Part shown: piece by piece, positions 12,458-60,828 of the stretch
How the letters are laid out: each line of letters begins with the position of its first letter
Position numbering within the stretch: position 1 is the stretch's first letter
Source of the DNA: Jannaschia pohangensis
GTDB taxonomy: Bacteria > Pseudomonadota > Alphaproteobacteria > Rhodobacterales > Rhodobacteraceae
Direction: 5' to 3'
Assembly (NCBI RefSeq): GCF_900113875.1
Contig: NZ_FORA01000002.1
Coordinates: 620,001 to 684,000, forward strand
Length of the DNA: 64,000 nucleotides
The notes under the pieces: generated by a model
What the model was told of the DNA's origin: nothing
The model's database searches: none
The model's input: only the letters and a program-made list of their open reading frames with translations
Made by a program: the position numbers and the translations under genes

Positions 12458-12474
12458 GGGATCCCCGGCGCAAT

Positions 12475-12493: not shown

Positions 12494-12519
12494 CATCGTC
12501 CGGAAAGGAACCGGAAATC

Positions 12520-12545: not shown

Positions 12546-12554
12546 GTGAACCGC

Positions 12555-14240: not shown

Positions 14241-14264
14241 GGGTCTTCCCTCGTCTGGGTGCCC

Positions 14265-15332: not shown

Positions 15333-15431
15333 TGGGCACATCCCTCGGATTCGGACCTGCCTGCCAGAACTTCCTTATGATCGGGTGAACATTGGCTGGA
15401 CGGCGGGGCGCAGCGCGTCCAGAACCCCCCC

Positions 15432-16079: not shown

Positions 16080-16164
16080 TCACGGCCCCGCATCGCAACG
16101 GCCCCCGTCGCCGGACAAGACCCTGAACCGCCCGACCGGCGACCGAAACACGAAGGACCCTCCC

Positions 16165-17151: not shown

Positions 17152-17234
17152 GCGGGATGATGTCGGGCCTGCGCGAAGGGCTGGCCTGACGGGTGCCCTT
17201 GGCCTAGCCTTGGCCCGGAATCGGGGGGCATCGA

Positions 17235-28425: not shown

Positions 28426-28456
28426 GGTAGTCTCCCCAGGTTGATACCCGCCCCCG

Positions 28457-29386: not shown

Positions 29387-29413
29387 GCAGGGCCCCTGTG
29401 GTATCGGCAGACG

Positions 29414-29776: not shown

Positions 29777-30129
29777 GTCATCAGCCACAAGAGCACCCCC
29801 GGGAAGGTCTGGATCAGAACGACGGTCAGGAAGGCACTGACCGCGCCCATCCGGGTCGCCCAGGCGACCACGGGCGCGTCACGGTCGAGGGTCGCCTCGG
29901 GGATCGCGCCATAGGTCAGCCACCGGCGCAGGACGCGGAACCCCCGCGCCACCGCCTGCGACATCGGGTCCGGGAAGAGGCCCAGCCAGACCGCCCAGAG
30001 CCCGCCCAGCCAGAGGTCGAGCGGGGCCACAAGGAAGGCCATGGTCAGATAGCCGATCAGAAAGCCGAGCGTCGCCCAGGCCGTTAGTTCCAGCCGGGGG
30101 AGGTTGATGGGGGGCGACCAATTGCTCAT
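29773..30129 (-). CDS. Small membrane protein within the purine importer operon (A)
   Basis: A 118-residue protein of unknown function. It starts MSNWSPPINLPRLELTAW and has about three hydrophobic segments (TLGFLIGYLTMAFLVAPLDLW, GGLWAVWLGLF, MGAVSAFLTVVLIQTFPGV). It overlaps the upstream permease by four bases and the next small gene by four bases, so all are translated from one message. Together with its neighbour it could be an extra membrane component of the importer. Confidence 0.72.
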   Translation of the reverse strand: MSNWSPPINLPRLELTAWATLGFLIGYLTMAFLVAPLDLWLGGLWAVWLGLFPDPMSQAVARGFRVLRRWLTYGAIPEATLDRDAPVVAWATRMGAVSAFLTVVLIQTFPGVLLWLMT

Positions 30130-46935: not shown

Positions 46936-47081
46936 CATCCCCCCGTGGCGCGAAGGCTATCACGGCGGCGGGTGGCGGCAAGTTGATACAATTCGTTGCA
47001 ATTCAGCAAAACCGGTGAAGGAATCGCGTCCCAAGGTGACGGGGCCGCGTCGGGGAGGATGCGGCACAGGGGGGATCAGAC

Positions 47082-49028
47082 ATGGCCGACCTTCGGACGA
47101 TTCCGGATTTCATGGATCGCAACGCCACCAGCTTTGCGCAGGCCCCTGCCTACCGCGAAAAGGAATTCGGCATCTGGCAGGAGTGGACCTGGGCCGAGGC
47201 CCGGGCCGAGATCGAGGAGATCGCCCGGGGCCTGATCGTGCAGGGCTTGGAGATCGGGGAACATGTGGGCGTCATCGGACGCAACCGCCCGCAACTTTAT
47301 ATGGCCATGGTCGCCGCCCAATGCGCCGGTGGCATTCCCGTCCCGCTCTATCAGGATGCCGTGGGCGAGGAGCTGGCCTATGTCCTGGGCCACTGCGCCG
47401 CCCGCTTCGTCATCGCCGCCGATCAGGAGCAGGTCGACAAGGTGATCGAGGTGAAGGACCGGATCGAGGGTCTGCGCCACATCGTCTATCTGGATGGTCG
47501 GGGCCTGCGGAAATACGACCATTCCGCCATGTCATCGATGGAGGCCTTGCGCGAAAAGGGCCGCGCCGCCGACCGGGCCGAGATGGACCGCCGCCGTGCC
47601 CAGCAGACGGGCGCCACCACTTGCGTCATGCTCTATACCTCCGGCACGACAGGGCGGCCCAAGGGCGTGGTGCTCAGCCATGACAACATCGTGGAGACGT
47701 CGAAGAACTCCAGCGGCTTCGACGGGCTGCGGCAGGGGGACGAGGTTCTGGCCTATCTGCCGATGGCCTGGGTCGGGGATTTCATCTTCTCCATCGGGCA
47801 GGCCATGGTCACCGGCTTCTGTGTGAATTGCCCTGAAAGCGCCGACACCGTCATGCACGACCTGCGCGAGATCGGGCCGACCTATTACTTCGCCCCGCCC
47901 CGCGTATTCGAGACACAGCTGACCAACGTCATGATCCGGATGGAGGACGCGAGCCGCTTCAAGAAGTGGCTTTTTGATCGCGCCATGGCCCACGCCAAGA
48001 CCATCGGGCCGAAACTGCTCGACGGGGAAGAGGTCGGTTTCATGGACCGGCTGAAATACAAACTGGGCGAAATCTTCGTCTTCGGGCCGCTCAAGAACAC
48101 ACTGGGGCTGAGCCGGGTGCGCGTCGGCTATACCGCCGGAGAGGCCATCGGGCCGGAACTTTTCGATTTCTACCGCTCCATCGGCATCAACCTGAAGCAG
48201 CTTTACGGCCAGACCGAAGCCTCGGTCTTCATCACCCAGCAGAAGGACAACGAGGTCCGCTCCGACACCGTGGGCACGCCGACCCCGGGGGTGGAGCTTC
48301 GGATCGCGGAGAACGGCGAGGTGTTCTATCGCTCGCCCGGGACCTTCGTCGAATACTACAACAATCCCGAAAGCACCGCCTCGACCAAGGACCCGGAAGG
48401 CTGGGTCGCCACCGGCGACGCGGGCTTCATCGAGGAAGGCACCGGCCACCTGCGGATCATCGACCGCGCCAAGGATGTGGGCAAGATGGCGTCGGGCGCT
48501 CTGTTCGCGCCCAAGTTCGTGGAGAACAAGCTGAAGTTCTATCCCGACATCTATGAGGCTGTGGTCTTCGGCAATGGGCGCGACCGCTGCGTGGCCTTCG
48601 TCAACATCGACCTGACCGCCGTGGGCAACTGGGCGGAGCGCAACAACATCGCCTATGCCTCCTATCAGGAGCTGGCCCAGCATCCCCGCGTGCTGGAAAC
48701 CATCACCAATCATGTCGAGACGGTCAACAAATCGGTGGCCGAGGACGAAATGCTGTCCGGCTGCCAGATCCACCGCTTCCTTGTCCTGCACAAGCAGCTG
48801 GACGCCGACGACGAGGAAATGACCCGCACCCAAAAGGTCAAGCGCCGCACCATCGAAGAGAAATACGCCGACCTGATCGAGGGCCTCTATAGCGGCGTGG
48901 ACGAGGTCTATACCGAAACCGAAGTCACCTATGAGGACGGCCGCAAGGGCAAGATCAAGGCGACGGTAAAGATGTGCGATGCCAAGGTCGTGCCGGTGAC
49001 GGCCAAGGTGCTGGAGGCGGCGGAGTGA
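47082..49028 (+). CDS. Long-chain/aryl acyl-CoA ligase (AMP-binding)
   Basis: A 648-residue adenylate-forming enzyme. The ATP P-loop is YTSGTTGRPKGVVLSHDN at about residue 186, with YGQTEAS, GWVATGDAGF and the C-terminal catalytic region (TRTQKVKRRTIEEKYADL). It would activate the imported acid as acyl-CoA. It is the first gene of a plus-strand cluster with livG, livH, livM, livK, livF and a PaaK-like ligase, a set associated with import and activation of aromatic or branched acids. The next gene starts at the overlapping GTGA. Confidence 0.9.
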   Translation: MADLRTIPDFMDRNATSFAQAPAYREKEFGIWQEWTWAEARAEIEEIARGLIVQGLEIGEHVGVIGRNRPQLYMAMVAAQCAGGIPVPLYQDAVGEELAYVLGHCAARFVIAADQEQVDKVIEVKDRIEGLRHIVYLDGRGLRKYDHSAMSSMEALREKGRAADRAEMDRRRAQQTGATTCVMLYTSGTTGRPKGVVLSHDNIVETSKNSSGFDGLRQGDEVLAYLPMAWVGDFIFSIGQAMVTGFCVNCPESADTVMHDLREIGPTYYFAPPRVFETQLTNVMIRMEDASRFKKWLFDRAMAHAKTIGPKLLDGEEVGFMDRLKYKLGEIFVFGPLKNTLGLSRVRVGYTAGEAIGPELFDFYRSIGINLKQLYGQTEASVFITQQKDNEVRSDTVGTPTPGVELRIAENGEVFYRSPGTFVEYYNNPESTASTKDPEGWVATGDAGFIEEGTGHLRIIDRAKDVGKMASGALFAPKFVENKLKFYPDIYEAVVFGNGRDRCVAFVNIDLTAVGNWAERNNIAYASYQELAQHPRVLETITNHVETVNKSVAEDEMLSGCQIHRFLVLHKQLDADDEEMTRTQKVKRRTIEEKYADLIEGLYSGVDEVYTETEVTYEDGRKGKIKATVKMCDAKVVPVTAKVLEAAE

Positions 49029-49330
49029 TCACAACAAACCATAAATTTCTGGCAGGCTTTGCTTGTGCGTGCGGCCTCGCTTGCGGCTTGCTTGGCGGCA
49101 ATATCGACGGCGGAACATTGGCCCTATTTGCGATGGTTGCGGCATGGCCTGCCGCAGCCTTTGGATACTACCTAGGAAAATCCCGAGAAATTGAGAACGA
49201 TCACAACCGATATGAAGGAGCGTTTGGAGCGATCGGCGGCGGCTTTGCTTCAACTCTGTTTTCTACTTTTCCGTTCGTTCTCGGTCTCGGTGCCGGATGG
49301 TTTATCGCACCAGTTCTAGGGAGCGCGTAG
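49025..49330 (+). CDS. Small AT-richer membrane protein in the liv cluster
   Basis: A 101-residue protein with GTG start overlapping the ligase stop codon (GTGA). It is strongly hydrophobic, with three likely membrane segments (FLAGFACACGLACGLLGG, LALFAMVAAWPAAAFGYYLG, FPFVLGLGAGWFIAPVLG) and the short charged loop KSREIENDHNRYEG. GC is visibly lower than in the neighbouring genes, hinting at recent acquisition. I do not recognise the family. Confidence 0.62.
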   Translation: MITTNHKFLAGFACACGLACGLLGGNIDGGTLALFAMVAAWPAAAFGYYLGKSREIENDHNRYEGAFGAIGGGFASTLFSTFPFVLGLGAGWFIAPVLGSA

Positions 49331-49331
49331 A

Positions 49332-49430
49332 ATGAACGCCCAACCCGACACCTTCACCACCGCAGACGGGCGGACGATTGGGGGCACCGTCATGGACCTG
49401 CGCAACATTACGCTGCGGTTTGGCGGGGTG
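49332..49430 (+). repeat. Duplicated 5' end of livG (copy 1)
   Basis: These 99 bases correspond to the first 96 bases of livG at 50873-50968, one codon longer. The encoded peptides share 27 of 32 aligned residues by my count, and the match stops abruptly after GGCGGGGTG. An inverted repeat, GGCGGGGT and ACCCCGCC around GA (49422-49439), marks the end of the homology. This is evidence of a local duplication or insertion at the livG start. Confidence 0.85.
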
Positions 49431-49973
49431 AACCCCGCCCTCCGGCGTTTGATCGGCTGCGTTGTCTTCTGCCTGCTTGGCGCCCCGGCTTTGGCCGAGA
49501 CGCTCAGCGACGACATGACCTTTGCGATGAACCATTGTCTGGGGCCGATCGCCTATGGGATCGACGCCGAAACGGACGCGCTGGAGCCGACCACGGCGGA
49601 AGCCCTGGGGCGCACGCCGGAGCCGAGCCCGGCCTTTTCCGACCCCGCGTTTCATCTGGGCCCCGAGGGGCAGGTGCTTGCGCGGATGCAGGCCGGGGAG
49701 CAGCGTTTTTGCCAGGTCTCGTTGACCGAAGGGTCGCTGGACGTGGATCGCGCGATGGTTTTCGTCGCCGCGGACATTCTGAACCTTGCGCTGAGCGGAA
49801 GTTGTGCGCGCCGCGCCGAGACCGAGCCGACCCTGGTCCATCTTGCCAGCTGGGATCGCAATGCGCGCGGCTTTTACACAAGCGTCACCCTGAGCGAGAG
49901 CCGCGAAACGGGGCATCTCAACCTGATCGCGGGGGAATGGCCGACGTCCCGTTTGGACAAGCGGTGCGAATGA
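49332..49973 (+). CDS. Exported two-cysteine protein A, fused to a copy of the livG N-terminus
   Basis: Read from ATG 49332 it is 213 residues. Residues 1-33 (MNAQPDTFTTADGRTIGG and so on to FGGV) copy the LivG N-terminus. A signal peptide follows (LRRLIGCVVFCLLGAPALA), then an exported domain with a first Cys (MNHCLGP), a second in FCQV, and a late beta strand. The GTG at 49428 is an alternative start that removes the LivG part and leaves a normal signal peptide; it sits in an inverted repeat at the junction. Function unknown. It belongs to the array of similar exported proteins in this cluster. Confidence 0.7.
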   Translation: MNAQPDTFTTADGRTIGGTVMDLRNITLRFGGVNPALRRLIGCVVFCLLGAPALAETLSDDMTFAMNHCLGPIAYGIDAETDALEPTTAEALGRTPEPSPAFSDPAFHLGPEGQVLARMQAGEQRFCQVSLTEGSLDVDRAMVFVAADILNLALSGSCARRAETEPTLVHLASWDRNARGFYTSVTLSESRETGHLNLIAGEWPTSRLDKRCE

Positions 49974-50022
49974 TGGTCCGGCTGACCCCGAAACCCCCTG
50001 TGACTTTGCGGAGGAGACCGGC

Positions 50023-50277
50023 ATGAGCGTGCTGACCTTTGCCCTGATCATGACGGCCATCGGGCTGCCACTGGCCTTTGCGGCACGGCGGGTAGCGTCG
50101 GACAAGCTGGCAAATGCGATGATCTATGCCGCCGGGATCGGCATGGGGATGTCTTGGAAGCTGTTGGTCTTCCGCGATGGCGGGATCATCAGAACCTTCG
50201 TTTTCATCCTTGTGGGCATGGGCGTGGCCCTCGTGCTGGGCGGGGGACTCGCACCCATGAAAAGAGGTCGGGAATGA
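50023..50277 (+). CDS. Small membrane protein in the liv cluster
   Basis: An 84-residue protein starting MSVLTFALIMTAIGLPLAFA, with three hydrophobic stretches (residues 1-20, 31-46 around ANAMIYAAGIGMGM, and 57-77 around IRTFVFILVGMGVALVLGGG). GGAGGAGA precedes the ATG. Its stop overlaps the start of the next exported protein gene (ATGA). No family is recognised. Confidence 0.6.
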   Translation: MSVLTFALIMTAIGLPLAFAARRVASDKLANAMIYAAGIGMGMSWKLLVFRDGGIIRTFVFILVGMGVALVLGGGLAPMKRGRE

Positions 50278-50876
50278 CAGGTCTCCAGCACATCATGCGC
50301 CTCCGGGGCCGATGCGTGACGCTCTGCGCGGCGATCGTCCTGGCCGCAGGTACGGCAGAGGCCGAACATGCGGAAACCGTCGCCAAGATCGCGATGGACC
50401 GCTGCATCGCCACAATGAGCGCGGGCTCGCCCCCGGACGTGAGCGGGCTGCGCCCCCTCGACAATGTGGCAGGGTCTGCGTTCAGCGATGCGGCCATGAC
50501 TCCTGATGATGAGATCGCCGTTGACCCGCGGGTGTTGCGGGGCCTGCGCGATTGTCAGGTTGCGTCGGACACACGGCGCGTGAAACTCGGTCCCGACGCC
50601 ATCGCCGCCGCCAAAGCGACCTTTTCCGAGCTGGCCGACAGGCTCGTGGCCGACGGCGGTTTTGTCGAACAATCCATCACGGGACCGACCGAAGGTATGG
50701 TCGGATCGTTCTTCGTCGAAGAGGGTGACTTCGTGCGCCGTCTCGCCTCGACTGCTCCGGTTCGCGAGGGCCTCTACATTGAAGTGAGCCTGATGACCGG
50801 GGCCTATCACGGCGAAGTCGCCATTGTGGTGTCCGAGCATTTCGGCCCCCCGCCCGAGGAGGTATCCCTGCGATGA
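50274..50876 (+). CDS. Exported two-cysteine protein B in the liv cluster
   Basis: A 200-residue protein with a signal peptide ending near GTAEAEHAE. The mature part has a helix with Cys (AKIAMDRCIATM), a variable acidic/proline region, then LRDCQVASD, the same C-x-V context as in protein A (FCQV). A late strand reads YIEVSLMTGAYHGE. ATGA overlaps join it to both the preceding small gene and livG, which begins within its stop codon. Function unknown. Confidence 0.65.
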   Translation: MTGLQHIMRLRGRCVTLCAAIVLAAGTAEAEHAETVAKIAMDRCIATMSAGSPPDVSGLRPLDNVAGSAFSDAAMTPDDEIAVDPRVLRGLRDCQVASDTRRVKLGPDAIAAAKATFSELADRLVADGGFVEQSITGPTEGMVGSFFVEEGDFVRRLASTAPVREGLYIEVSLMTGAYHGEVAIVVSEHFGPPPEEVSLR

Positions 50877-51688
50877 ATGCCCAACCCCAGACAGTGACGG
50901 CGGACGGTCGCACGATTGGCGACGTGGTCATGGATATGCGCAACATCACGCTGCGGTTTGGCGGGGTGGAGGCGATCAAGGATATTTCCTTCGACATCCG
51001 CGAGGGGGAGATCCGGGCGATCATCGGGCCGAACGGGGCGGGCAAGTCGTCGATGCTCAACGTCATCAGCGGCTTCTACGTCCCGCAGGAGGGGGAGGTC
51101 TGGTTTCGCGGCAAACCGCGCCCGCCGATGAAGCCCTACGAGGTCGCCCAGCAGGGGATCGCGCGGACGTTCCAGAACATCGCCCTGTTCGAGGGGATGT
51201 CGGTCCTCGACAACGTGATGTGCGGGCGGCTTGGGCACATGAAGACCAACATGCTGACGCAGGCGCTGTGGTGGGGAAAGGCCGCTCGGGAGGAAGAGGA
51301 GAACCGCGAAGCCGTCGAACGGGTCATCGATTTCCTTGAAATTCAAGCCATTAGAAAGACACCGGTCGGTCGCCTGCCCTACGGCCTCAAGAAGCGGGTG
51401 GAGCTGGCGCGGGCCCTTGCGGCAGAGCCGAAGCTTCTGCTGCTGGACGAGCCGATGGCCGGCATGAACGTCGAGGAAAAGGAGGACATGTCGCGTTTCA
51501 TCCTCGATGTGAACGACGAATTCGGCACGACGATCGCGTTGATCGAACACGACATGGGCGTGGTCATGGACCTGTCGGACCGGGTCGTGGTGATGGATTA
51601 CGGCAAGAAGATCGGGGACGGCACGCCCCATGAGGTGCGCAACAATCAGGCAGTGATCGACGCCTATCTGGGGGTTGCCCATGACTGA
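50873..51688 (+). CDS. livG: Branched-chain amino-acid-type ABC importer ATPase LivG
   Basis: A 271-residue ATPase. It has Walker A IIGPNGAGKSSMLN, signature PYGLKKRVELARAL (of the liv-ligase subgroup), Walker B LLLLDEPMAGMN and the switch His in ALIEHDMGVV. It pairs with LivF to drive the LivHM permeases. ATG overlaps the stop of exported protein B; its stop overlaps exported protein C (ATGACTGA). The N-terminal extension before the core (MNAQPQTVTADGRTIGD) also occurs in front of protein A. Confidence 0.92.
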   Translation: MNAQPQTVTADGRTIGDVVMDMRNITLRFGGVEAIKDISFDIREGEIRAIIGPNGAGKSSMLNVISGFYVPQEGEVWFRGKPRPPMKPYEVAQQGIARTFQNIALFEGMSVLDNVMCGRLGHMKTNMLTQALWWGKAAREEEENREAVERVIDFLEIQAIRKTPVGRLPYGLKKRVELARALAAEPKLLLLDEPMAGMNVEEKEDMSRFILDVNDEFGTTIALIEHDMGVVMDLSDRVVVMDYGKKIGDGTPHEVRNNQAVIDAYLGVAHD

Positions 51689-52280
51689 CGGGCGCTTCGG
51701 GATATGCGGCCCGGAAGCCACAGGCGGGGGGCGCATTTCGTACACCCCCGGTACACCCCCCGTACACCCCCCGTGCAGACGGGTTGACGGGCGGGGGCGC
51801 TCTGGTTTCTGGTGCGCGGTCGCCGCCGGTCTGACCCTTGGCGGCCCGGCGCTGGCTGATCCCGCATGGGACGCTTTCGAGGCGCGGTGCCTGACGCCGA
51901 TGGCGGATTTCGAACTGGCCGCGCCGACGGACCTGCCGCTGCTTCGGTCGCTCAAGAATGACGGGAACGGCTATTCGGTCTTCGACGGGGGCGGGTTCGA
52001 GGTGCGGGTTTCGGACCGGTTGGACGCCGAGGGGCGCGGCCTTTTTGGCGCGGCCATGTGTTCGGTGGTGACCGCAGGCGAGGGCGCCGAGACGGCGAAT
52101 GCCTTCCTCATGTGGTCGTCCCGCCCCGAAGCCTTCGAGATGTGGGAAGAGGTCGCGGGCGACGGCACGGCGCTGGTCCTGCGGTCGACCACATGGCGGG
52201 AGCCGAAGATGGAGGTCTCGCTCACCATGGGACCGGAGTCCGTCCGGCTGAAGGCAGAGGAGACCGACCTTGAGAGTTGA
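51681..52280 (+). CDS. Exported two-cysteine protein C, N-terminus carrying an 11-bp repeat array
   Basis: A 199-residue frame starting at ATG 51681, which overlaps the livG stop. The first 45 residues include TYTPGTPPVHPP-like sequence from the 11-bp repeats; a signal-peptide-like segment follows (GFWCAVAAGLTLGGPALAD). The mature part has a Cys (AFEARCLTPM), a second in AMCSVV, and a strand MEVSLTMGPES. No ATG, GTG or TTG lies in frame between the repeats and the signal peptide. The long leader is unusual; the gene may have been altered by insertion of the repeats. Function unknown. Confidence 0.58.
   Translation: MTDGRFGICGPEATGGGRISYTPGTPPVHPPCRRVDGRGRSGFWCAVAAGLTLGGPALADPAWDAFEARCLTPMADFELAAPTDLPLLRSLKNDGNGYSVFDGGGFEVRVSDRLDAEGRGLFGAAMCSVVTAGEGAETANAFLMWSSRPEAFEMWEEVAGDGTALVLRSTTWREPKMEVSLTMGPESVRLKAEETDLES
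51745..51777. repeat. Second 11-bp repeat array (CCCCCCGTACA type)
   Basis: The units are CCCCCGGTACA (51745-51755), CCCCCCGTACA (51756-51766) and CCCCCCGTGCA (51767-51777), preceded by CGTACA and followed by GACGGG. The unit, the period and the following GAC match the array at 24882-24914, 27 kb away. Here it lies at the livG/protein C junction, inside the open frame of the latter. Confidence 0.8.
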
Positions 52281-53328
52281 GCAGACATTGCGACGCGCAT
52301 CTAGCCGCCGCGCGTTCGGCGGTCTGGTCCTTGGCCTGATGGTCGGCGCCGGGACGATGGCGTCGGCACAGGGTGATCCGCGACAGGGCGTCGTTCAGGC
52401 CGTCCAGGACTGTGCCGCATTCGTGGCGGCGAAATCGACCGAGATCTTCCCCGAGCCCGGGTTCGAGATGGCAGGCGATATCCTGTTCGAGACGACGCAG
52501 GACAGGCCGGCCTCGGGCCTTGCGCTGAAATTCACGCATTTCATTCCGGCCACGCCCGAAGGTTCCGGTTCGGCAGCGCCGCCGCATCTGTGGCAATGCA
52601 ATGTCACCGGCAGCCGCCTTTCCAGACCGATCTGGTTGGCGGCGGATATACGCGGGCTGTTCTCGGACGCGACTGCAATTCTCCCGACGCTGGAGGTCCG
52701 GAAGGCGGAAGACGAAAACTGGCAGTATGAGGATTGCGCCGACCCCGCCGCCCCGGTGGATTACGCGTTCGGGCTGTCCAAGGTGGGCCACCTGTACGTG
52801 CAGGTGACCGCGCCGACGCTTGACGCATTTTCCTGCCGCGACCTGATCGAGGTGGACCGGCTGTTCTATGCCTGTGTCTATGCCTTTGCCAAAGAGCCGT
52901 GGGAGAAGATCCGCGAGGCAAGCGGCGAGGCGTCGGTCCCCGGGCAGTTCACCCTGCATCACGATGAAACGCTTGACGATCTGGTGGGTTTCGCGCCCGG
53001 CACGGACGGTACCCGGCGGGGCACGGTCGAGACGGAAGTCGGCCCCGTGGAGGTCGCGCTGACCGGGGTGGCTCCGACCACCGAATGCCGCGTCGAGGGG
53101 ACGGCCAGCGAGGAGGTGCTGAACGACTGGCTCGTCTCTGCGTCGATCTTCTATGACGGCGGTTTCTTCCGCTTCGATGGCGGCCGGGGGGTCTATACCT
53201 GCGCCCCGAGTTTCCCGAGCGTCGCGATGTTCCTCGAGGAGAGGCCGCTGGACGGCGGGGCCGTGGCCTTCGCGCTGACCATGGACACCGGGGATTATCC
53301 CACGCTGCGCGAGATGTGTGCGGGATGA
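52270..53328 (+). CDS. Exported protein D, two tandem domains, twin-arginine-type signal
   Basis: A 352-residue protein, TTG start overlapping the stop of protein C by 11 bases. The N-terminus has a twin-arginine-like signal (SSRRAFGGLVLGLMVGAG). The first domain has a Cys in VQAVQDCAAF and a WQCNV motif like the other exported proteins. A second half has ECRVEGTAS and YTCAPSF, ending with AFALTMDTGDY. It looks like a fusion or duplication of the basic domain. The stop overlaps protein E (ATGA). Function unknown. Confidence 0.62.
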   Translation: MRVEQTLRRASSRRAFGGLVLGLMVGAGTMASAQGDPRQGVVQAVQDCAAFVAAKSTEIFPEPGFEMAGDILFETTQDRPASGLALKFTHFIPATPEGSGSAAPPHLWQCNVTGSRLSRPIWLAADIRGLFSDATAILPTLEVRKAEDENWQYEDCADPAAPVDYAFGLSKVGHLYVQVTAPTLDAFSCRDLIEVDRLFYACVYAFAKEPWEKIREASGEASVPGQFTLHHDETLDDLVGFAPGTDGTRRGTVETEVGPVEVALTGVAPTTECRVEGTASEEVLNDWLVSASIFYDGGFFRFDGGRGVYTCAPSFPSVAMFLEERPLDGGAVAFALTMDTGDYPTLREMCAG

Positions 53329-53912
53329 GGATTATGTGCCCCACCCTGCCCCTATGGGCCGCTGCGGTTGCTGTCGGCCTTGTGTCGACTGCGTCGATGG
53401 CCACGGGCGAGCCGACGCGAGCGGAGGTGATCGCGGACATGTCCCGTGGCGTGGACATGTGCCTGGACGCCCTGCGGACGGGGGATACGCGGGTGATCGA
53501 GGCACTGCAGACCGTTTATGGCACGTCTGTGGCCGTCGGCACACCCACGAAAGCACTTCCGAAGTGGAGCGCGCGGCTCCGACTGGAAACGCTGGAAGAA
53601 GGCACGCCTGACGTCCGCGGATGCCATGTCGGCACGACGGACGAATGGCAGGAGAGCCTTGTTCGACCGGACATCATGACCTGGGCCGAAAGCAAGATGA
53701 CCGACGTCACGGCGGACACTGCTGTCACGCGTTTTCCCGTTCCCGTCCGACTCGGCGGTCCGGCACGTGTCTGGTGCGAGCAAAGTGTCGGCCTTTTCGC
53801 GAGCATCGGCCACGGACTGACGGGTCAGGGAGTGGACATTGCCATATCAAGGATCGACCCCGAAACGCCCCCTTCGCCGAACACGCCCCCCAACCCCTGC
53901 AACCCGGAGTAG
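53325..53912 (+). CDS. Exported two-cysteine protein E in the liv cluster
   Basis: A 195-residue protein with a signal peptide (MRIMCPTLPLWAAAVAVGLV, ending near MATGEP). The mature part has a helix with Cys (SRGVDMCLDAL), a second Cys in RGCHVGTTD and a third in RVWCEQSV. It ends in a Pro/Asn-rich tail (PPSPNTPPNPCNPE). The ATG overlaps the stop of protein D. livH starts three bases after its stop. Function unknown. Confidence 0.62.
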   Translation: MRIMCPTLPLWAAAVAVGLVSTASMATGEPTRAEVIADMSRGVDMCLDALRTGDTRVIEALQTVYGTSVAVGTPTKALPKWSARLRLETLEEGTPDVRGCHVGTTDEWQESLVRPDIMTWAESKMTDVTADTAVTRFPVPVRLGGPARVWCEQSVGLFASIGHGLTGQGVDIAISRIDPETPPSPNTPPNPCNPE

Positions 53913-53915
53913 ACC

Positions 53916-54905
53916 ATGCCAGATCAAGTGCTGTTCGGATTAGAAGTGGCCCTGAACGGGTTGATGGCGGGAGTGATGTATTCGCTGGTCGCCCTCGGGT
54001 TCGTGCTGATCTTCAAGGCGTCGGGCATCTTCAACTATGCCCAGGGGGTCATGGCGCTCTTCGCGGCGATGACATTGGTGGGGATCCAGAACGGCCAGGT
54101 GCCGTTCAGCCACCTGATCAACGCGACCTTCGGGACCGATATCCATTATTTCGGATGGCAGGCGCCGGCCCTTCTGGCGATCCTGCTGACGGTGGTGGTG
54201 ATGGCGGTGTTCGCCTGGCTGGTGAACCGGCTGGTGTTCCGCCACCTCGTCAATCAGGAGCCGATCATCCTGTTCATGGCGACCATCGGTCTGGCGTATT
54301 TCCTGGAGGGGGTCGCGGACCTGATGTGGGGGTCCGAGATCAAGAAGCTGGACGTCGGCCTGCCGCAAGGCATCAACGAATGGATCGACGGGGCGACGTT
54401 CGAGATCTTCGGCTATGGCTTCTTCATCGACAATCTGGACCTTGTGGCGACGGTGATCGCGGCCCTGCTGGTCGGCGGGCTGGTGGTGTTTTCGCAATAC
54501 ACCAAGCAGGGCCGGGCCTTGCGCGCGGTGGCCGACGACCATCAGGCGGCCTTGTCGGTGGGCATCTCGCTCAACTTCATCTGGGTGCTGGTCTGGTCCA
54601 TCGCGGGGTTCGTCGCCCTGGTCGCGGGGATCATGTGGGGCGCCAAGTCGGGGGTGCAGTTCTCGCTGTCGCTGATCGCGCTGAAGGCCCTGCCGGTGCT
54701 GATGCTGGGCGGGTTCACGTCGATCCCGGGGGCCATTGTCGGCGGGTTGATCATCGGGGTGGGCGAGAAGCTGTTCGAGTTCCTGATCGGCGCGCCCTAC
54801 CTTGGGGGGGCCACCGAGAACTGGTTCGCCTATGTGCTGGCGCTCGCCTTCCTTGTGGTGCGTCCGCAGGGTTTGTTCGGGGAGAAGATCATTGAGCGGG
54901 TTTGA
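53916..54905 (+). CDS. livH: Branched-chain amino-acid-type ABC importer permease LivH
   Basis: A 329-residue inner-membrane permease with about eight segments. The LivH pattern starts GLEVALNGLMAGVMYSLVALGFVLIFKASGIFNYAQG and continues with ADDHQAALSVGISLNFIW and the GGFTSIPGAIVGGLIIGVGE loop. It forms the channel with LivM. The next small gene may begin at the TTG overlapping its stop (TTGA) or at an ATG at 54998. Confidence 0.92.
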   Translation: MPDQVLFGLEVALNGLMAGVMYSLVALGFVLIFKASGIFNYAQGVMALFAAMTLVGIQNGQVPFSHLINATFGTDIHYFGWQAPALLAILLTVVVMAVFAWLVNRLVFRHLVNQEPIILFMATIGLAYFLEGVADLMWGSEIKKLDVGLPQGINEWIDGATFEIFGYGFFIDNLDLVATVIAALLVGGLVVFSQYTKQGRALRAVADDHQAALSVGISLNFIWVLVWSIAGFVALVAGIMWGAKSGVQFSLSLIALKALPVLMLGGFTSIPGAIVGGLIIGVGEKLFEFLIGAPYLGGATENWFAYVLALAFLVVRPQGLFGEKIIERV

Positions 54906-54997
54906 GATGGCGCCCCGGAATTGTCCCCGGTCTGTCCCGCTTTGGGCCGATTGCGCGGACAGTCTTCAGGTTCGAACGGATCTGGAGACGCGTGCGG

Positions 54998-55306
54998 ATG
55001 GGCAAGGTATTTGGATACTTCTTCATGGTGTGCGCCGGGCTATGCCTTCTGGCTCTGGTATCCGATCTGATCTGGATGCGGCGGACTGGCTTCATGTTTG
55101 TTCCATTCGGGCAAGAACTGACCTTGTGGTTCATTGGGGGGTATGTCGGCGCGTTCGTCTCACTGATGTTCAGCGCGTGGATCGCTTTCGTCCTGCAAGA
55201 GATACGCGAGGGTCAGCAGGACATTCTCGACCGGCTGGCGGGACGGGGTACCGGGCCGTTGACGCTCAAATCCGAACCCCGGTTGCAGCGCTCGCGCGCG
55301 GCCTGA
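54998..55306 (+). CDS. Small membrane protein between livH and livM
   Basis: A 102-residue protein. MGKVFGYFFMVCAGLCLLAL begins a first membrane segment; LTLWFIGGYVGAFVSLMFSAWIAFVL gives a second. A charged helix follows (QEIREGQQDILDRLAGR). The ATG at 54998 has GGAG about ten bases upstream. A TTG at 54902 overlapping the livH stop would add a basic leader. The family is not recognised. Confidence 0.58.
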   Translation: MGKVFGYFFMVCAGLCLLALVSDLIWMRRTGFMFVPFGQELTLWFIGGYVGAFVSLMFSAWIAFVLQEIREGQQDILDRLAGRGTGPLTLKSEPRLQRSRAA

Positions 55307-55332
55307 GGCTAGCCCGACCGCCTGCGGCGTGC

Positions 55333-55350
55333 CACGGGAGGAATCCCGTG
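55333..55350. repeat. Perfect hairpin between two small genes of the liv cluster
   Basis: CACGGGA and TCCCGTG pair perfectly around a GGAA tetraloop. No T-run follows. It lies 26 bases after one small membrane-protein gene and 53 bases before the next, so it may stabilise or partly terminate the transcript. Confidence 0.5.
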
Positions 55351-55403
55351 AGCTGCCCGTCAGACCTCTTCGATCAGGGTGCGGGACGCAGGGGGCCGAT
55401 GAC

Positions 55404-55664
55404 ATGACATCCAGATTGCTCCCGATCCTTCGGCCTTTGCCCGCTATTCTCTTTGCCTACGGCATCGTCATGACCTTCATGGGAGTCCTGGAGGCCAAAG
55501 CGGTCGCAACACCGACCAGTGTCTATGGCACATCCCTCAGTGTGGAGCGGGTGTTGTACCTGACGGCGCTTTCGCGGTCCCTGGATCCGATCATGCACGT
55601 CACGGCGTTGGCGGCCATCGTGATGGCGGTCCTGCGATACCTTGATGCCGGGAAGGACGCATGA
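55404..55664 (+). CDS. Small membrane protein upstream of livM
   Basis: An 86-residue protein. MTSRLLPILRPLPAILFAYG begins a first hydrophobic segment, and SLDPIMHVTALAAIVMAVLRYL gives a second near the C-terminus. A short open frame starts within its stop (ATGA), then livM follows. No family is recognised. Confidence 0.55.
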   Translation: MTSRLLPILRPLPAILFAYGIVMTFMGVLEAKAVATPTSVYGTSLSVERVLYLTALSRSLDPIMHVTALAAIVMAVLRYLDAGKDA

Positions 55665-55783
55665 TGGCCTTTTCCGGTTCTGGACAGCTCAGCGAAAAAA
55701 AGCGACTGCAAGATCTGGTGGTGCGGGCATTGCCCTGCCTGCCCGGACGTCGACAGGAGGGATGCGATAATGCTCTATCGTGA
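55661..55783 (+). CDS. Possible 40-residue protein overlapping livM
   Basis: A short frame beginning MMAFSGSGQLSEKKRLQDLV that starts at the ATGA overlapping the previous stop and ends 14 bases inside livM. The AGGAGG at 55756-55761 within it serves livM. It may only couple translation across the gap, or be chance. Confidence 0.25.
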   Translation: MMAFSGSGQLSEKKRLQDLVVRALPCLPGRRQEGCDNALS

Positions 55784-56846
55784 AGCCGGAGACTTCAAGA
55801 CTTCTTATGCCGAGGACAACCAGACCTTTCCGATCAAGTTCGACCGGGTGGGGTATTACGTCGTGCTGGCGGTGGCGGTGCTGGTGGTTCCGTTCTTCAT
55901 CAACGACTACTGGGCCAGCGCCTTCCTGATCCCCTTCCTGATCTATGCCATCGCGGCCATCGGGTTGAACATCCTGACGGGATATTGCGGGCAGGTGAGC
56001 CTGGGGACGGGCGGGTTCATGGCCGTGGGGGCCTATGCCTCCTACAAGCTGATGACGGCGTTTCCCTGGATGGACATGGTGACGGTCACCCTGTTGTCGG
56101 GCCTTGTCACGGCGGCGGTGGGTGTCGTGTTCGGCCTGCCCAGTTTGCGGATCAAGGGGTTCTATCTGGCGGTGGCGACACTGGCGGCGCAGTTCTTCCT
56201 TGTCTGGCTCTTCAACAAGGTGGGGTGGTTCTACAACTACTCGGCCTCGGGGCAGATCAACGCGCCCGAGCGGGAGTTCTTCGGCCTGATCCTGACCGGC
56301 CCGAACGCGGCGGCGGCGACGCAGTACCTGTTCTGCCTGGCCTTCGTACTGGTGCTGGCCTGGGTCGCGCGGAACCTGACCCGGGGCACGGTGGGGCGCA
56401 AGTGGATGGCGATCCGCGACATGGACATCGCCGCCGAGATCATCGGGGTGAATCCCTTGCGCGCGAAGCTGTCGGCCTTTGCGGTGTCGTCGTTCTTCGT
56501 GGGCATATCGGGCGCGCTGTTCTTCACGATCTACCTGGGCGCGGTCGAAGTGGGCGAGGCCTTCGGCATCCAGAAGTCGTTCCTCGTGCTGTTCATGATC
56601 ATCATCGGGGGCCTCGGCTCTATCTTCGGGTCCTTCGCGGGGGCGGCGTTCCTGGTGCTGTTGCCGGTGGTGCTCAAGCTGGTGGGCGTGGATCTGCTGG
56701 GCTGGCCCACGGACATCGTGGCGCATCTTCAACTGGTCATCGTGGGCGGGCTGATCGTGTTCTTCCTGATCGTGGAGCCGCACGGGCTGGCGCAGCTGTG
56801 GCGGGTGACCAAGGAGAAACTGAGATTGTGGCCCTTCCCGCACTGA
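55770..56846 (+). CDS. livM: Branched-chain amino-acid-type ABC importer permease LivM
   Basis: A 358-residue permease with a polar N-terminus (YREAGDFKTSYAEDNQTFP) typical of this subgroup, then about eight to ten membrane segments. Signatures are AAIGLNILTGYCGQVSLGTGGFMAVGAY, DMDIAAEIIGVNPLRAKL and the GGLGSIFGSFAGAAFL loop. AGGAGG is eight bases before the ATG. It partners LivH. livK follows after 74 bases. Confidence 0.92.
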   Translation: MLYREAGDFKTSYAEDNQTFPIKFDRVGYYVVLAVAVLVVPFFINDYWASAFLIPFLIYAIAAIGLNILTGYCGQVSLGTGGFMAVGAYASYKLMTAFPWMDMVTVTLLSGLVTAAVGVVFGLPSLRIKGFYLAVATLAAQFFLVWLFNKVGWFYNYSASGQINAPEREFFGLILTGPNAAAATQYLFCLAFVLVLAWVARNLTRGTVGRKWMAIRDMDIAAEIIGVNPLRAKLSAFAVSSFFVGISGALFFTIYLGAVEVGEAFGIQKSFLVLFMIIIGGLGSIFGSFAGAAFLVLLPVVLKLVGVDLLGWPTDIVAHLQLVIVGGLIVFFLIVEPHGLAQLWRVTKEKLRLWPFPH

Positions 56847-56920
56847 GGCGGGGCGGACCATGGAAGGCGGCGGGGGCCAATCCCGTCACATGTATCGGAC
56901 ACCTTAGGGAGGAAAGACCG

Positions 56921-58198
56921 ATGAAACTTGGAACTTTGACAATCGCGGCGATCATGGCCGCAAGCCCGGTGATGGCGGACCTCGTGTTTCCGTCGCTGAG
57001 CTATCGCACCGGGCCCTATGCCGCGGGCGGCATCCCCTTTGCCGACGGCTATGCCGACTATTTCACCCTGCTCAACCAACGCGACGGCGGCATCGGCGGC
57101 GTCATGACCCGCGTTCTGGAGTGCGAAACCGGCTACAACACCGAAAAGGGTGTGGAATGCTATGAAAGCACCAAGGGCGAAGGTTCGCTGGTCTATCAGC
57201 CGCTGTCGACCGGCATCACCTATCAGCTGATCCCCAAGACCGCAGCCGATGGCATCCCCATGCACACCATGGGCTATGGTCGCACCTCTGCCGCCAATGG
57301 CGCGATCTTCAACAACATCTTCAACTATCCCGCGAACTACTGGGACGGGGCGTCGATCGCCGTGAACTACCTGCTGTCGGAAAATGGCGGCAGCCTCGAA
57401 GGCAAGAAGATCGCGCTGATCTATCACAACTCGGCCTATGGCAAGGAGCCGATCCGCACGCTGGAAGAGCTGTCGGCCATCCACGGGTTCGAGCTGACGC
57501 AGCTGGCCGTGGATCACCCGGGTCAGGAGCAGAAGTCCCAGTGGTTGCAGATCCGGCGCGAGCGTCCCGACTATGTCGTGATGTGGGGCTGGGGCGTGAT
57601 GAACCAGGTCGCCGTTCAGGAAGCCGCCAACATCCGTTTCCCGATGGAGAATTTCATCGGCAACTGGTGGGCCGGGTCCGAGAATGACGTGCTGCCCGTG
57701 GGCGAGGCCGCCAACGGCTACAAGGCGCTGGCCATGCACAACGTGGGCGACGACTTCCCGGTGTTCGCCGACATCCAGACCCATGTGGTCGATGCCGGGA
57801 TGGCTGCGGGCAACGGCGACCAGATCGGCACGGTGCTCTATAACCGTGGCCTCTATGCCGCGATGCTGGCCGCCGAAGCCGCCAAGAAGGCGCAGGAAAT
57901 CCACGGCGTCGCGGATATCACTCCGCAGATGATGCGCGACGGGATGGAAGCGCTGGTCGTGGACGAGGCCCTGATGGAAAGCCTCGGCATGCCCAACTTC
58001 GGCCCCGAGTTCACCGTGTCCTGCGAGAACCACGGCGGGTCGGGCCAGGGCAAGGTGCAGCAGTGGAACGCGTCCACCGGCGAATGGGAGATCCTCACCG
58101 ACTGGATTTCCAGCGACCGCGCGGTCATCGACCCGCTGATCGCGGAGGACTCGGCCGCCTATGCCGCCGAGAACAACGTCGAGCCGTCCTGCGGCTGA
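56921..58198 (+). CDS. livK: Branched-chain amino-acid-type periplasmic binding protein LivK
   Basis: A 425-residue periplasmic protein with signal peptide MKLGTLTIAAIMAASPVMA. It has the type I binding fold: SYRTGPYAAGGIPFADGYADY, KIALIYHNSAYGKEPIRTLEEL, and MENFIGNWWAGSENDVLPVG in the C-terminal lobe. Cys residues at VLECETGY/GVECYES and ENNVEPSCG could pair. It captures the imported acid or amino acid. GGGAGGAAAG precedes the ATG. A strong hairpin follows the gene, as expected for a highly expressed binding protein. Confidence 0.92.
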   Translation: MKLGTLTIAAIMAASPVMADLVFPSLSYRTGPYAAGGIPFADGYADYFTLLNQRDGGIGGVMTRVLECETGYNTEKGVECYESTKGEGSLVYQPLSTGITYQLIPKTAADGIPMHTMGYGRTSAANGAIFNNIFNYPANYWDGASIAVNYLLSENGGSLEGKKIALIYHNSAYGKEPIRTLEELSAIHGFELTQLAVDHPGQEQKSQWLQIRRERPDYVVMWGWGVMNQVAVQEAANIRFPMENFIGNWWAGSENDVLPVGEAANGYKALAMHNVGDDFPVFADIQTHVVDAGMAAGNGDQIGTVLYNRGLYAAMLAAEAAKKAQEIHGVADITPQMMRDGMEALVVDEALMESLGMPNFGPEFTVSCENHGGSGQGKVQQWNASTGEWEILTDWISSDRAVIDPLIAEDSAAYAAENNVEPSCG

Positions 58199-58210
58199 CG
58201 TGCGACAAAA

Positions 58211-58236
58211 GGCGCGCCCCGACCCCGGGGCGCGCC
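58211..58236 (+). terminator. Strong hairpin downstream of livK
   Basis: GGCGCGCCCC (58211-58220) and GGGGCGCGCC (58227-58236) form a perfect 10-bp stem with a GACCCC loop, 12 bases after the livK stop. There is no T-run, so it may act as an mRNA-stabilising or partial terminator element between livK and the downstream genes. Confidence 0.6.
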
Positions 58237-58261
58237 ACCCCGCGCCCCATTCGGAAAGATA

Positions 58262-59521
58262 ATGACGCTCGCATCCCTTCACTCGGCCTTGATGTCGCTG
58301 GTGCTTTGCACCGGGGTGTCGGCCTGTGCGGTGGCGCGACCGCCCGACAATTCCTGCCCCGCCCTGCCCATCGGCGGATTGCAGACCACCGCCGCCACGC
58401 AGTCGGCCCCGCCCGACGCGGTCGAGGCGATGATCGACGCCATCGCGCCCGCAGCGTCACCCCGCGCGCCCGCAGACCTCGAAGCGCAGACGGTGGAGAT
58501 GGCCGAGACGGCGATGATGGCGCAGGCACGCGGCCAGTCGCGGGCCCGGCCCATCACGGTGCGCATCATCACCCTGTCCGCAGGCGGGCAATGGGGCGCA
58601 TTCGGCGCGGGCCTGATGGCGGGCTGGTCGCAGAACCCGGCGACGCCGCGCCCGGTCTTCGATGTGGTCACCGGGGTCAGCGCCGGGGCGATCATCGCCG
58701 TGCCCCTGTTCGCCGGGCCGGAGTTCGACGGCGTCCTGCACTTCTATCGCGGGGTCGATGCCGACAGCGTGTCGACCCGCAGATCGTTGCCAGCCCTGCT
58801 GCGCGCGCCGTCGATCAACGATCCGGCCCCGCTGGAGGCGTTCTTCCGACGGTCGGTCACGCCCGACATGGTCCGCGCGATTGCGCGCCGCCACAGCGAA
58901 GGCGACCAGCTTCTGATTTCGGCCACCAACCTCGACACGACAGCCGGAGAGATTTTCGACCTGGGCGCCGTGGCCGAGATGGCCGATGCCGCGCAGGCCG
59001 CCGATTGCATCGTCGAGGCGATGCTTGCCTCGGCGGCGATCCCGGGCCTGTTGCCGCCGCGCGTCATCAACGGGACGCTCTATGCCGACGGGGGCCTGCG
59101 CGATCAGGTGTTCTTTCGCGCCATCGACACCGCCCGCACCCGGGTCGCGCGCGACCTGGGCCGACCCGTCCGGGTCGAGGCCTATCTGGTGGTCAACGGC
59201 GCGCTGACCCCGCCGACCCGCCCGGTCGAAGACCGTCTGCTGAGCTATTTCGGCCGGTCGGTCGAGGCGCTGGCCGACGAGGTTCAGCGCGACAGCATCA
59301 CCGACGCGGTGAATTTCGCCCAAGGGCGCGAGGGCTGGACAATCCGCGGGATGGTTCCGGTCGTCGACCTGTCGGGCTGCGGGTTCGACGACGCCCCCAC
59401 ATCGACCTTCGATCCCTGCCTGACGCGGACCGTCTTTGACGCCGGCGTCGCAGCGGGACGCGCCACCCCCATCGACTGGATGACGGCCGCCGAATTGCGC
59501 GCCATCGCCGACGAATTGTAA
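58262..59521 (+). CDS. Patatin-like phospholipase, putative lipoprotein
   Basis: A 419-residue protein. Its signal peptide ends in GVSAC, a possible lipobox. The patatin features are the oxyanion loop LSAGGQWGAFGAGL, the nucleophile elbow GVSAG (Ser near residue 141), and the catalytic Asp in YADGGLRDQ. It probably cleaves acyl esters of lipids in the periplasm or outer membrane. It sits between livK and livF, which normally are adjacent in such clusters; no transport link is known. livF starts nine bases after its stop. Confidence 0.85.
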   Translation: MTLASLHSALMSLVLCTGVSACAVARPPDNSCPALPIGGLQTTAATQSAPPDAVEAMIDAIAPAASPRAPADLEAQTVEMAETAMMAQARGQSRARPITVRIITLSAGGQWGAFGAGLMAGWSQNPATPRPVFDVVTGVSAGAIIAVPLFAGPEFDGVLHFYRGVDADSVSTRRSLPALLRAPSINDPAPLEAFFRRSVTPDMVRAIARRHSEGDQLLISATNLDTTAGEIFDLGAVAEMADAAQAADCIVEAMLASAAIPGLLPPRVINGTLYADGGLRDQVFFRAIDTARTRVARDLGRPVRVEAYLVVNGALTPPTRPVEDRLLSYFGRSVEALADEVQRDSITDAVNFAQGREGWTIRGMVPVVDLSGCGFDDAPTSTFDPCLTRTVFDAGVAAGRATPIDWMTAAELRAIADEL

Positions 59522-59530
59522 GGACACCCC

Positions 59531-60370
59531 ATGCTCGACACCCAGAAGACGCCAGAGACCGTCACGCAGGATGCGCTGCTGGAGGTCAACAACATCGAAG
59601 TGATCTACAACCACGTCATCCTGGTCCTGAAGGGTGTCAGCCTGACCGTGCCCAAGGGCGGGATCACCGCCCTTCTGGGTGGTAACGGGGCGGGCAAGAC
59701 GACGACGCTGAAGGCGATTTCCAACCTGCTGAAGTCGGAACGGGGCGACGTCACCAAGGGGTCGATCACCTATCGCGGCGACCGCATTCAGGACCTGTCT
59801 CCCGCAGACCTCGTGTCGCGCGGCGTCATCCAGGTGATGGAGGGGCGCCATTGCTTCGAGCATCTGACCATCGAGGAGAACCTGCTGACCGGGGCCTATA
59901 CCCGCCGCGATGGCAGCAAGGCCACGGCGGACGACCTCGAGATGGTCTACGAGTATTTCCCGCGCCTGCGCGAACGGCGGAAGTCGCAGGCCGGTTATAC
60001 CTCGGGCGGGGAGCAGCAGATGTGCGCCATCGGGCGCGCGATGATGGCGCGGCCCGAGATGATCCTGCTCGATGAGCCGTCGATGGGCCTGGCCCCGCAG
60101 CTGGTCGAGCAGATCTTCGGCATCGTCAAACGCCTGAACGAGGAGCAGGGCGTGACCTTCCTTCTGGCCGAGCAGAACACCAATGTGGCGCTGCGGTTCG
60201 CCCATTACGGCTACATCCTGGAGAGCGGGCGCGTGGTGATGGACGGCCCGGCGGCGGACCTGCGCGAGAACCCGGACGTCAAGGAATTCTACCTCGGCGT
60301 CAGCGACGAGGGCCGCAAATCGTTCCGCGATGTGCGGTCCTATCGGCGGCGCAAGCGGTGGCTGTCGTGA
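59531..60370 (+). CDS. livF: Branched-chain amino-acid-type ABC importer ATPase LivF
   Basis: A 279-residue ATPase. Walker A is LLGGNGAGKTTTLKA, signature TSGGEQQMCAIGRAMM, Walker B MILLDEPSMGLAP, and switch region LLAEQNTNVAL. The N-terminus (LEVNNIEVIYNHVILVLKGVSL) is the standard LivF start. It pairs with LivG. The VOC gene begins within its stop (GTGA). Confidence 0.93.
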   Translation: MLDTQKTPETVTQDALLEVNNIEVIYNHVILVLKGVSLTVPKGGITALLGGNGAGKTTTLKAISNLLKSERGDVTKGSITYRGDRIQDLSPADLVSRGVIQVMEGRHCFEHLTIEENLLTGAYTRRDGSKATADDLEMVYEYFPRLRERRKSQAGYTSGGEQQMCAIGRAMMARPEMILLDEPSMGLAPQLVEQIFGIVKRLNEEQGVTFLLAEQNTNVALRFAHYGYILESGRVVMDGPAADLRENPDVKEFYLGVSDEGRKSFRDVRSYRRRKRWLS

Positions 60371-60828
60371 GCGGCGTCGCCACCTGTCTGTGGTTCGCCG
60401 ACAATAACGGTCACGAGGCGGCGGCCTTCTGGTGCGACCTGCTGCCGGACAGCCGGATCACGATGGTGATGCCGGGCCCCGATAGCGCGCCCATCGCGGT
60501 GGCCTTCGAATTGATGGGCACGCGGTATCAGGCGCTGAACGGGGGGCCCCGCAACCGTCTGGGCGAAGAAACCTCCATCGTTATCGAAACCGACACCCAG
60601 GCCGAGACCGACCGCCTCTGGTCGGCGCTGTCGGAGGGGGGTGAGCCGCTTCAATGCGGATGGCTGCGCGACCGCTTCGGTGTGCATTGGCAGATCGCGC
60701 CGAAAGGTCTGTGGGAGATGAACAGCGATCCCGACAGGGCCGCAGCGAAACGGTCGTTCGACGCGATGCTGACGATGGACAAGATCGACATCGCAGCGAT
60801 CCGTGCCGCCTTCGAGGGGCGGGCATGA
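60367..60828 (+). CDS. VOC/PhnB-like protein (3-demethylubiquinone 3-methyltransferase-type fold)
   Basis: A 153-residue protein. It begins GVATCLWFADNNGHEAAAFW and has FELMGTRYQALNGG, TDTQAETDRLWSALSEGG and RFGVHWQIAP, the glyoxalase-like (VOC/PhnB) repeat pattern. Members bind small molecules or metals; the reaction is unknown. GTG at 60367 overlaps the livF stop (GTGA), and the end overlaps the RNA ligase gene (ATGA). Confidence 0.8.
   Translation: MSGVATCLWFADNNGHEAAAFWCDLLPDSRITMVMPGPDSAPIAVAFELMGTRYQALNGGPRNRLGEETSIVIETDTQAETDRLWSALSEGGEPLQCGWLRDRFGVHWQIAPKGLWEMNSDPDRAAAKRSFDAMLTMDKIDIAAIRAAFEGRA

What the first reader, a model, noticed from the sequence alone, without database searches (positions are those of the whole stretch)
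49025..55664. An array of exported two-cysteine proteins and small membrane proteins is interleaved with the core genes of a Liv-type importer
Between the ligase and livM I count five exported proteins (49332, 50274, 51681, 52270, 53325) and four small membrane proteins (49025, 50023, 54998, 55404), placed around livG and livH. The exported ones share one layout: signal peptide; a helix with Cys (MNHC, MDRC, EARC, VQDC, VDMC); about 50 residues later a C-x-V motif (FCQV, DCQV, MCSV, QCNV, GCHV); and, in four of them, a late strand such as EVSLTMG, EVSLMTG or AFALTMD. Sequence outside these motifs is very divergent, as in a fast-evolving family. The genes overlap each other by 4-11 bases, so they look like functional members of one operon. 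I know of no described family of this form in liv clusters. They might be accessory binding or chaperone proteins for the importer, or a cargo array that uses the operon for expression.
Basis: partly seen in the sequence, partly recalled or inferred. Interest (0 to 1): 0.8.

Follow-up and report, generated by a model that had tools for sequence, protein, structure and literature searches.

The report
Fast-evolving exported proteins in importer operon
In the bacterium Jannaschia and some of its relatives, a conserved nutrient-importer operon carries extra genes for small, fast-changing exported proteins with paired cysteines; they look like an undescribed family tied to this importer, whose job is not yet known.

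Summary
The array is real. Between ligase and livM the window (genus Jannaschia) carries five exported and four small membrane proteins. Core gene order is the same in 31 genomes compared, while spacers differ between species. The exported proteins beside livG share a cysteine frame and match no Pfam or NCBIfam family: a four-cysteine form (16 of 27 domains, 0 of 23 control families) and a two-cysteine form; 52270 looks like two four-cysteine domains. Signal-peptide-free profiles join only 50274 to 51681; the others rest on the cysteine frame. The 51681 type lies between livG and livH in 19 of 19 operons where it was found (9 Jannaschia, 10 others); one distant relative is elsewhere, and most genera lack it. 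A second copy of the livG 5' end precedes 49332, and another Jannaschia has a livG remnant before an exported gene, so duplication may have fed the array; the source of the copy is ambiguous. Other slots take unrelated cargo, and the nuo operon carries an analogous array (three DUF5333). Best reading: disulfide-bonded periplasmic partners of this importer; function is inferred. Hitchhiking and importer-shielding remain open.

The parts
47082..49028 (+). AMP-binding acyl-CoA ligase, first gene of the operon
   Evidence: NCBIfam: the 25 best of 101 matches are mostly acyl-CoA ligases, each below its cut-off; median identity 88% in 16 other Jannaschia operons
49025..49330 (+). A: small membrane-like protein (TM segments not computed), atypical codon use, overlaps the ligase stop by 4 bases
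   Evidence: no Pfam match
49332..49430 (+). second copy of the livG 5' end (33 codons), in frame with B
   Evidence: 82% aa, 78.8% nt to 50873-50968, flanks not similar
49332..49973 (+). B: exported four-cysteine protein; possible own start GTG 49428
   Evidence: Cys frame; no Pfam or NCBIfam match
50023..50277 (+). C: small two-TM protein
   Evidence: only sub-threshold Pfam matches
50274..50876 (+). D: exported two-cysteine protein, profile relative of E
   Evidence: second-best hit of the E profile in the whole genome (E 0.005); joins the mature-only profile
50873..51688 (+). livG, ATPase; start overlaps D by 4 bases
51681..52280 (+). E: exported two-cysteine protein, starts inside the end of livG; WREP and ETDLES motifs
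   Evidence: AlphaFold2 model pLDDT 87
52270..53328 (+). F: exported protein with eight cysteines that read as two four-cysteine domains
   Evidence: one relative, in G018, 37%, none in the other 197 genera; halves not linked by profile; AlphaFold2 failed, pLDDT 39
53325..53912 (+). G: exported four-cysteine protein
   Evidence: Cys frame; in 20 Jannaschia genomes the best other hit is E 0.003
53916..54905 (+). livH, permease
54998..55306 (+). H: small two-TM protein of the livH-livM slot
   Evidence: relatives in the same slot in G006 68%, G004 36%, G013 29%
55404..55664 (+). I: small two-TM protein
55770..56846 (+). livM, permease
56921..58198 (+). livK, substrate-binding protein (named by position; no NCBIfam match)
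   Evidence: median 78% identity in 16 other Jannaschia, against 87-92% for the other core genes
58262..59521 (+). patatin-like phospholipase with lipoprotein-like start, livK-livF slot
   Evidence: PF01734, 3.7e-21; same slot in G008, G012, G013, G018
59531..60370 (+). livF, ATPase

Best explanation
The exported proteins around livG are periplasmic, disulfide-bonded accessory proteins of this particular Liv-type importer. Shown: an undescribed set (E and D related by sequence; B, F and G by cysteine frame) sits beside livG, overlaps it in the window, is very divergent and is present in a minority of genera. Inferred: the proteins are secreted, form disulfides (C1-C2 and, where present, C3-C4), and bind the outer face of LivH/LivM or the LivK protein, tuning assembly, substrate delivery or exposure of the importer. 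The array may have grown partly by duplication of a [livG + exported gene] unit with loss of the extra livG, in an operon whose spacers accept new genes. The small two-TM proteins between livH and livM are a separate, slot-specific set.
For: E type lies between livG and livH in each of the 8 family genomes that have it, of 198 searched, in 9 of 9 Jannaschia operons with it and in 9 of 9 named loci; without repeats these are 19 genomes. It is the first gene after livG in 16 of the 19; another gene stands between in G010, G015 and G018. In 20 Jannaschia genomes its profile has no second strong copy; the one other hit below 0.001, in G005 (1e-4), lies outside liv over the start of a longer ORF. 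Cysteine number is even in 26 of 27 liv-slot domains against 12 of 20 cysteine-containing control families. Four-Cys frame 16 of 27 against 0 of 23, and 12 of 21 without the window proteins. Of 27 long livG-livH gaps in other genera, 7 hold E type and 13 others hold a protein of which 12 meet the layout or the frame and 12 have a predicted signal peptide. Exported ORFs: 14 of 39 in the two slots beside livG, 0 of 23 between livH and livM, where 16 of 23 are small TM. Five other Liv/Urt-type operons of the same genome show no small exported or small TM ORF between core genes. livG 5' remnants precede an exported gene in two Jannaschia species.
Against: Most genera with the operon lack the proteins (median livG-livH gap 70 bases); 6 of 17 Jannaschia operons have no recognised member; two relatives lie outside the operon (W type in G204, E-like in G182). 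Five divergent exported proteins in one operon is unusual for a dedicated accessory. The nuo operon of the same genome carries an analogous array, so interleaving is not special to this importer. B, F and G are not joined by sequence. No livG 3' remnant was found, and the livG leader of B is closer to the livG of other species than to the window's own. No fold match points to a function.
Confidence: 0.5

Rival explanations
1. Hitchhiking cargo: the operon is a steadily expressed site whose spacers collect lineage-specific genes of unrelated function, and the exported proteins have nothing to do with import.
For: The same slots hold ParE-like (G015) and ParD-like (G013) proteins, a PD-(D/E)XK protein (G007), GFA-like and glyoxalase-like proteins and a patatin lipoprotein; spacer lengths differ from species to species; the nuo operon shows the same habit.
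Against: E type is nearly confined to this operon and one slot, and slots are typed; random cargo would be expected in other operons too.
Confidence: 0.3
2. Shield or immunity array: the exported proteins cover the importer's periplasmic face, or neutralise toxins that use it as an entry route, and diversify in an arms race.
For: Divergence, gain and loss, local multiplication and a disulfide-type cysteine frame fit; some contact-dependent toxins need specific inner-membrane ABC transporters to enter (PMC7858069, passages seen).
Against: No toxin or phage link was found: no PADLOC match better than E 0.088 for the five, no relative of E in viral contigs. No direct evidence.
Confidence: 0.13
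3. Nearly neutral by-products of a duplication-prone operon: secreted ORFs that drift with little function.
For: Divergence and frequent absence; livG remnants.
Against: A regular cysteine frame and even cysteine number are kept across sequences without detectable similarity; the WREP and ETDLES motifs of E are conserved across genera.
Confidence: 0.07

Closest known systems
DUF5333 (PF17267) and DUF5337 (PF17272) genes interleaved in the nuo operon (three DUF5333 and one DUF5337 among ten nuo spacer proteins tested)
   Same: small exported and small membrane proteins packed between genes of a conserved membrane complex; paralogues of one exported family in one operon
   Different: different families: none of the five window proteins matches DUF5333, and no profile linked the two sets
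Unidentified reading frames of the Paracoccus/Rhodobacter nuo clusters (recalled; not found in the papers searched)
   Same: interleaved small ORFs in an operon for a membrane complex in related bacteria
   Different: other operon, other proteins
Periplasmic substrate-binding proteins of Liv-type importers
   Same: periplasmic, same operon
   Different: the array domains are small (about 140-200 residues) and match no such family
PsbP/CyanoP and Flpp3 structures
   Same: among the best, non-significant Foldseek matches of the E model (E 0.02-0.16; TM by query length 0.28-0.35 for these entries)
   Different: no PDB match at E 0.001 or better; membership not shown

Membership tests
livG-linked cysteine-frame set (defined here) | Cys near the start of the mature protein and C-x-[VILA] 35-85 residues later | tested here: met
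   B, D, E, F, G all meet it; the rule was suggested by these five
livG-linked cysteine-frame set (defined here) | significant profile match without signal peptide | tested here: inconclusive
   met by D (and G144, G237) with E; not met by B, F, G or W
livG-linked cysteine-frame set (defined here) | same fold | tested here: inconclusive
DUF5333 (PF17267) | Pfam match at or above the gathering score | tested here: not met
   no match listed up to E 10, whereas three nuo proteins match
Known anti-phage defence proteins (PADLOC) | profile match | tested here: not met
   no match up to E 0.1 for B, E, F, G; D only at 0.088
Periplasmic immunity proteins | neutralise a cognate toxin | not testable with these tools
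   needs experiments
Branched-chain amino acid importer LivG/LivH (NCBIfam equivalogs) | score above the curated cut-off | tested here: not met
   best models are LivG (246.2 of 362 bits) and LivH (100.6 of 379 bits), below cut-off: Liv-type, substrate unknown

The most novel reading that the evidence does not exclude
A family of hyperdiverse, disulfide-bonded periplasmic proteins is dedicated to one ABC importer, is multiplied by repeated duplication of a livG-plus-exported-gene unit, and protects or re-tunes the importer in an arms race with phages, toxins or competitors.
Probability: 0.12. Interest if true: 0.85.

Novelty: new variant of a known kind. Interest (0 to 1): 0.55.

Why it matters
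ABC importers are taken to be complete with ATPases, permeases and a binding protein. A fast-evolving exported family that stays with one importer while the core hardly changes would mean an unknown layer of control or protection at its periplasmic face. It also makes a testable case of how conserved operons gain genes: the livG remnants may mark duplication or recombination events, and the liv and nuo operons of the same genome can be compared.

Tried and rejected
Rejected: that all five are one family by plain sequence. Iteration from E with signal peptides included converged on 28 members with none of 4990 reversed decoys, B and W among them, but with signal peptides removed only 18 remained (E type, D, G144, G237), so B and W by that route rest partly on signal-peptide similarity. 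F and G never joined. Of six control seeds run the same way, two gathered reversed decoys. A profile from X and G063 reached only three members. Halves of F were not linked by profile comparison (12.8% over 9 columns). Not found: relatives of D and F on plasmids or of E in viral contigs; B and G were not searched there. Rejected: strict exclusivity to liv (G204, G182). The G005 hit (1e-4) lies over the start of a longer non-liv ORF and was not counted. Weak A5 hits in G149, G183 and G097 and A6 hits above E 0.005 were not followed, except that one of them (0.0455) is the G204 place.

Own errors and limits: livK was read one base out of frame; one search corrects it, and the livK figures and livK gaps should be ignored. 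The ORF list, also used, comes from that version, so its livK-livF slot is unreliable; its codon filter also dropped ORFs (for example the W and E genes of G003 and E of G010, found), and the signal-peptide rule missed several exported proteins (B and E of the window among them). The 26 proteins were picked by me: one per type or genus, further E- and W-type proteins left out, G237 kept without a predicted signal peptide, G020b kept although it fails, G018c and F cut short there and completed. Signal peptides were judged by a crude rule. The 23 control families came from 77 predicted exported proteins in the window, the liv loci flanks, the nuo loci and five other loci. The four-Cys ranges were set after seeing the data. 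One search used some shadow ORFs as nuo core genes and is not relied on. One search was an empty script.
Full report
Setting. The window lies at G000:C15:620001-684000. Five named Jannaschia contigs have the same lengths as contigs of genomes called 'same genus' (J. aquimarina, J. faecimaris, J. pagri, J. marina, an uncultured Jannaschia), so the genus is Jannaschia. The operon reads ligase, A, B, C, D, livG, E, F, G, livH, H, I, livM, livK, patatin lipoprotein, livF. In 46900-60600 no sigma-70-like promoter was found and terminator-like sites were near the chance number, 12 against 8.5; no Rfam match.

Are the genes real? Codon statistics give the annotated frame the best score for all nine ORFs, but A is below zero in every frame and G only just above zero. 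None of B, D, E, F, G matches NCBIfam; in Pfam only G has hits, all sub-threshold.

A conserved core with changing spacers. The ligase gene was found at E 1e-100 or better in 17 of 20 Jannaschia genomes and in 36 of 60 genomes in all. I fetched 31 of those 36 (17 Jannaschia, 14 other genera; G023, G027, G036, G042 and G050 not fetched). All six core genes were found in the same order in the 31. Median spacers, Jannaschia against others: ligase-livG 577 against 55; livG-livH 677 against 75.5; livH-livM 477 against 207.5; livM-livK 82 against 86; livK-livF 114 against 75. At 300 bases or more: 12, 15, 11, 1 and 7 of 17 against 1, 1, 6, 0 and 0 of 14. In a family sample of one genome per genus, 133 other genera had livG and livH on one contig: median gap 70, and 27 of 133 at 300 or more. 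So the habit is strongest in Jannaschia but not confined to it.

What fills the spacers. The E type (motifs WREP and ETDLES) is in 10 of 31 loci, 9 of them Jannaschia, always between livG and livH. In G010, G015 and G018 another gene stands between livG and E; in the others E is next to livG. An exported type W is in 5 Jannaschia ligase-livG spacers, with a partial match in the livG-livH spacer of G018. In 198 genera the E profile hit 8 at E 0.001 or better, each next to livG on the livH side (for G115 the place of livH is). The nine named loci all have E between livG and livH. The 20 long livG-livH gaps without E were fetched. Thirteen hold a protein in which 12 meet the layout or the four-Cys frame (G149 meets neither) and 12 have a predicted signal peptide (G237 has none); of the other seven, three hold other recognisable ORFs and four nothing clear. 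Unrelated cargo in Jannaschia includes ParE-like and ParD-like proteins, a PD-(D/E)XK protein, GFA-like and glyoxalase-like proteins, and a cytosolic family without Pfam match.

One family? Profile iteration from E with signal peptides removed converged on 18 members with no reversed decoys and no nuo ORFs: E type, D, G144 and G237. In the whole window genome the second hit of the E profile is D, at E 0.005; the 1e-18 is circular, as D is in that profile. B and W join only with signal peptides included; F and G never join. In pairwise profile comparison several liv-liv pairs rank above liv-nuo pairs, but the best has a probability of 21%. The stronger common feature is the cysteine frame: 26 of 27 domains have an even number (12 of 20 cysteine-containing control families), and 16 of 27 fit a four-Cys frame with the last Cys near the C-terminus (0 of 23 controls; 12 of 21 without the window proteins). 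The window's B, G and both halves of F fit it. The ranges were set after seeing the data.

Fold. E was modelled from ten sequences at pLDDT 87, pTM 0.83: helix, four strands, two helices, four strands; the invariant C9 lies in the first helix and the nearly invariant C66 in the fourth strand. No PDB or viral match reached E 0.001. F failed (pLDDT 39).

Origin. B starts with 33 codons of livG, 78.8% identical to the window's livG 5' end, with dissimilar flanks. Its source is ambiguous. The copy is closer to livG of other species (88% to G016 over 86 bases; up to 87.3% against 84.1% to the window's own over 63 bases), and the window's own 5' end is the most divergent of the 16 compared (mean 78.3%). 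On the other hand the two copies share one base not seen in the 15 others. In G006 a separate livG 5' remnant ends in a stop that overlaps the GTG start of the exported W gene. Duplication of a livG-plus-exported-gene unit with loss of the extra livG would explain both; recombination with incoming DNA would too. No convincing livG 3' remnant was found.

Controls. Five other Liv/Urt-type operons of the same genome show no small exported or small TM ORF between core genes; one has a LysE-like gene and one has larger genes inside (labels are mine, unsearched). The nuo operon does have such an array: among ten spacer proteins tested, three DUF5333, one DUF5337 and a MAPEG protein. In the window, what looks like a BMP-type importer at 27316-32665 has two small TM proteins between its permease genes. 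Exported ORFs are 14 of 39 in the two slots beside livG and 0 of 23 between livH and livM (p 0.001).

Exceptions. A W-type protein stands alone outside the operon in G204, and an E-like one in G182 lies at a contig end away from livG. Three Jannaschia genomes (G005, G011, G017) gave no ligase match at 1e-100; 6 of 17 Jannaschia operons have no recognised exported member.

Literature. Ten searches listed no paper on this array, on DUF5333 or on DUF5337; most subscription papers are not in that library. I saw listings, and passages only of PMC9696053 (not relevant) and PMC7858069.

Verdict. A real, undescribed, very divergent exported set tied to livG of one importer, within an insertion-prone operon; the accessory role is my best inference at 0.5.

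Noticed in passing
window 29414-30129: Two small two-TM proteins lie between the permease genes of what looks like a BMP-type ABC importer (27316-32665), the same interleaving habit in a second importer.
   Followed up: no
L127 (flipped 4864-17930): The nuo operon carries three DUF5333 paralogues, a DUF5337, a MAPEG protein and other exported proteins between nuo genes.
   Followed up: partly
window 58262-59521: Patatin-like lipoprotein in the livK-livF slot, also in G008, G012, G013 and G018; it could release fatty acids for the importer and ligase (inference).
   Followed up: partly
L040, L046, L049, L051, L052, L054, livG-livH slot: A cytosolic family of about 150 aa recurs in this slot in six Jannaschia; the G013 member has no Pfam match; by eye G090 has a relative in the same slot.
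   Followed up: no
window 58211-58236: Inverted repeat of 11 G-C pairs between livK and the patatin gene.
   Followed up: no
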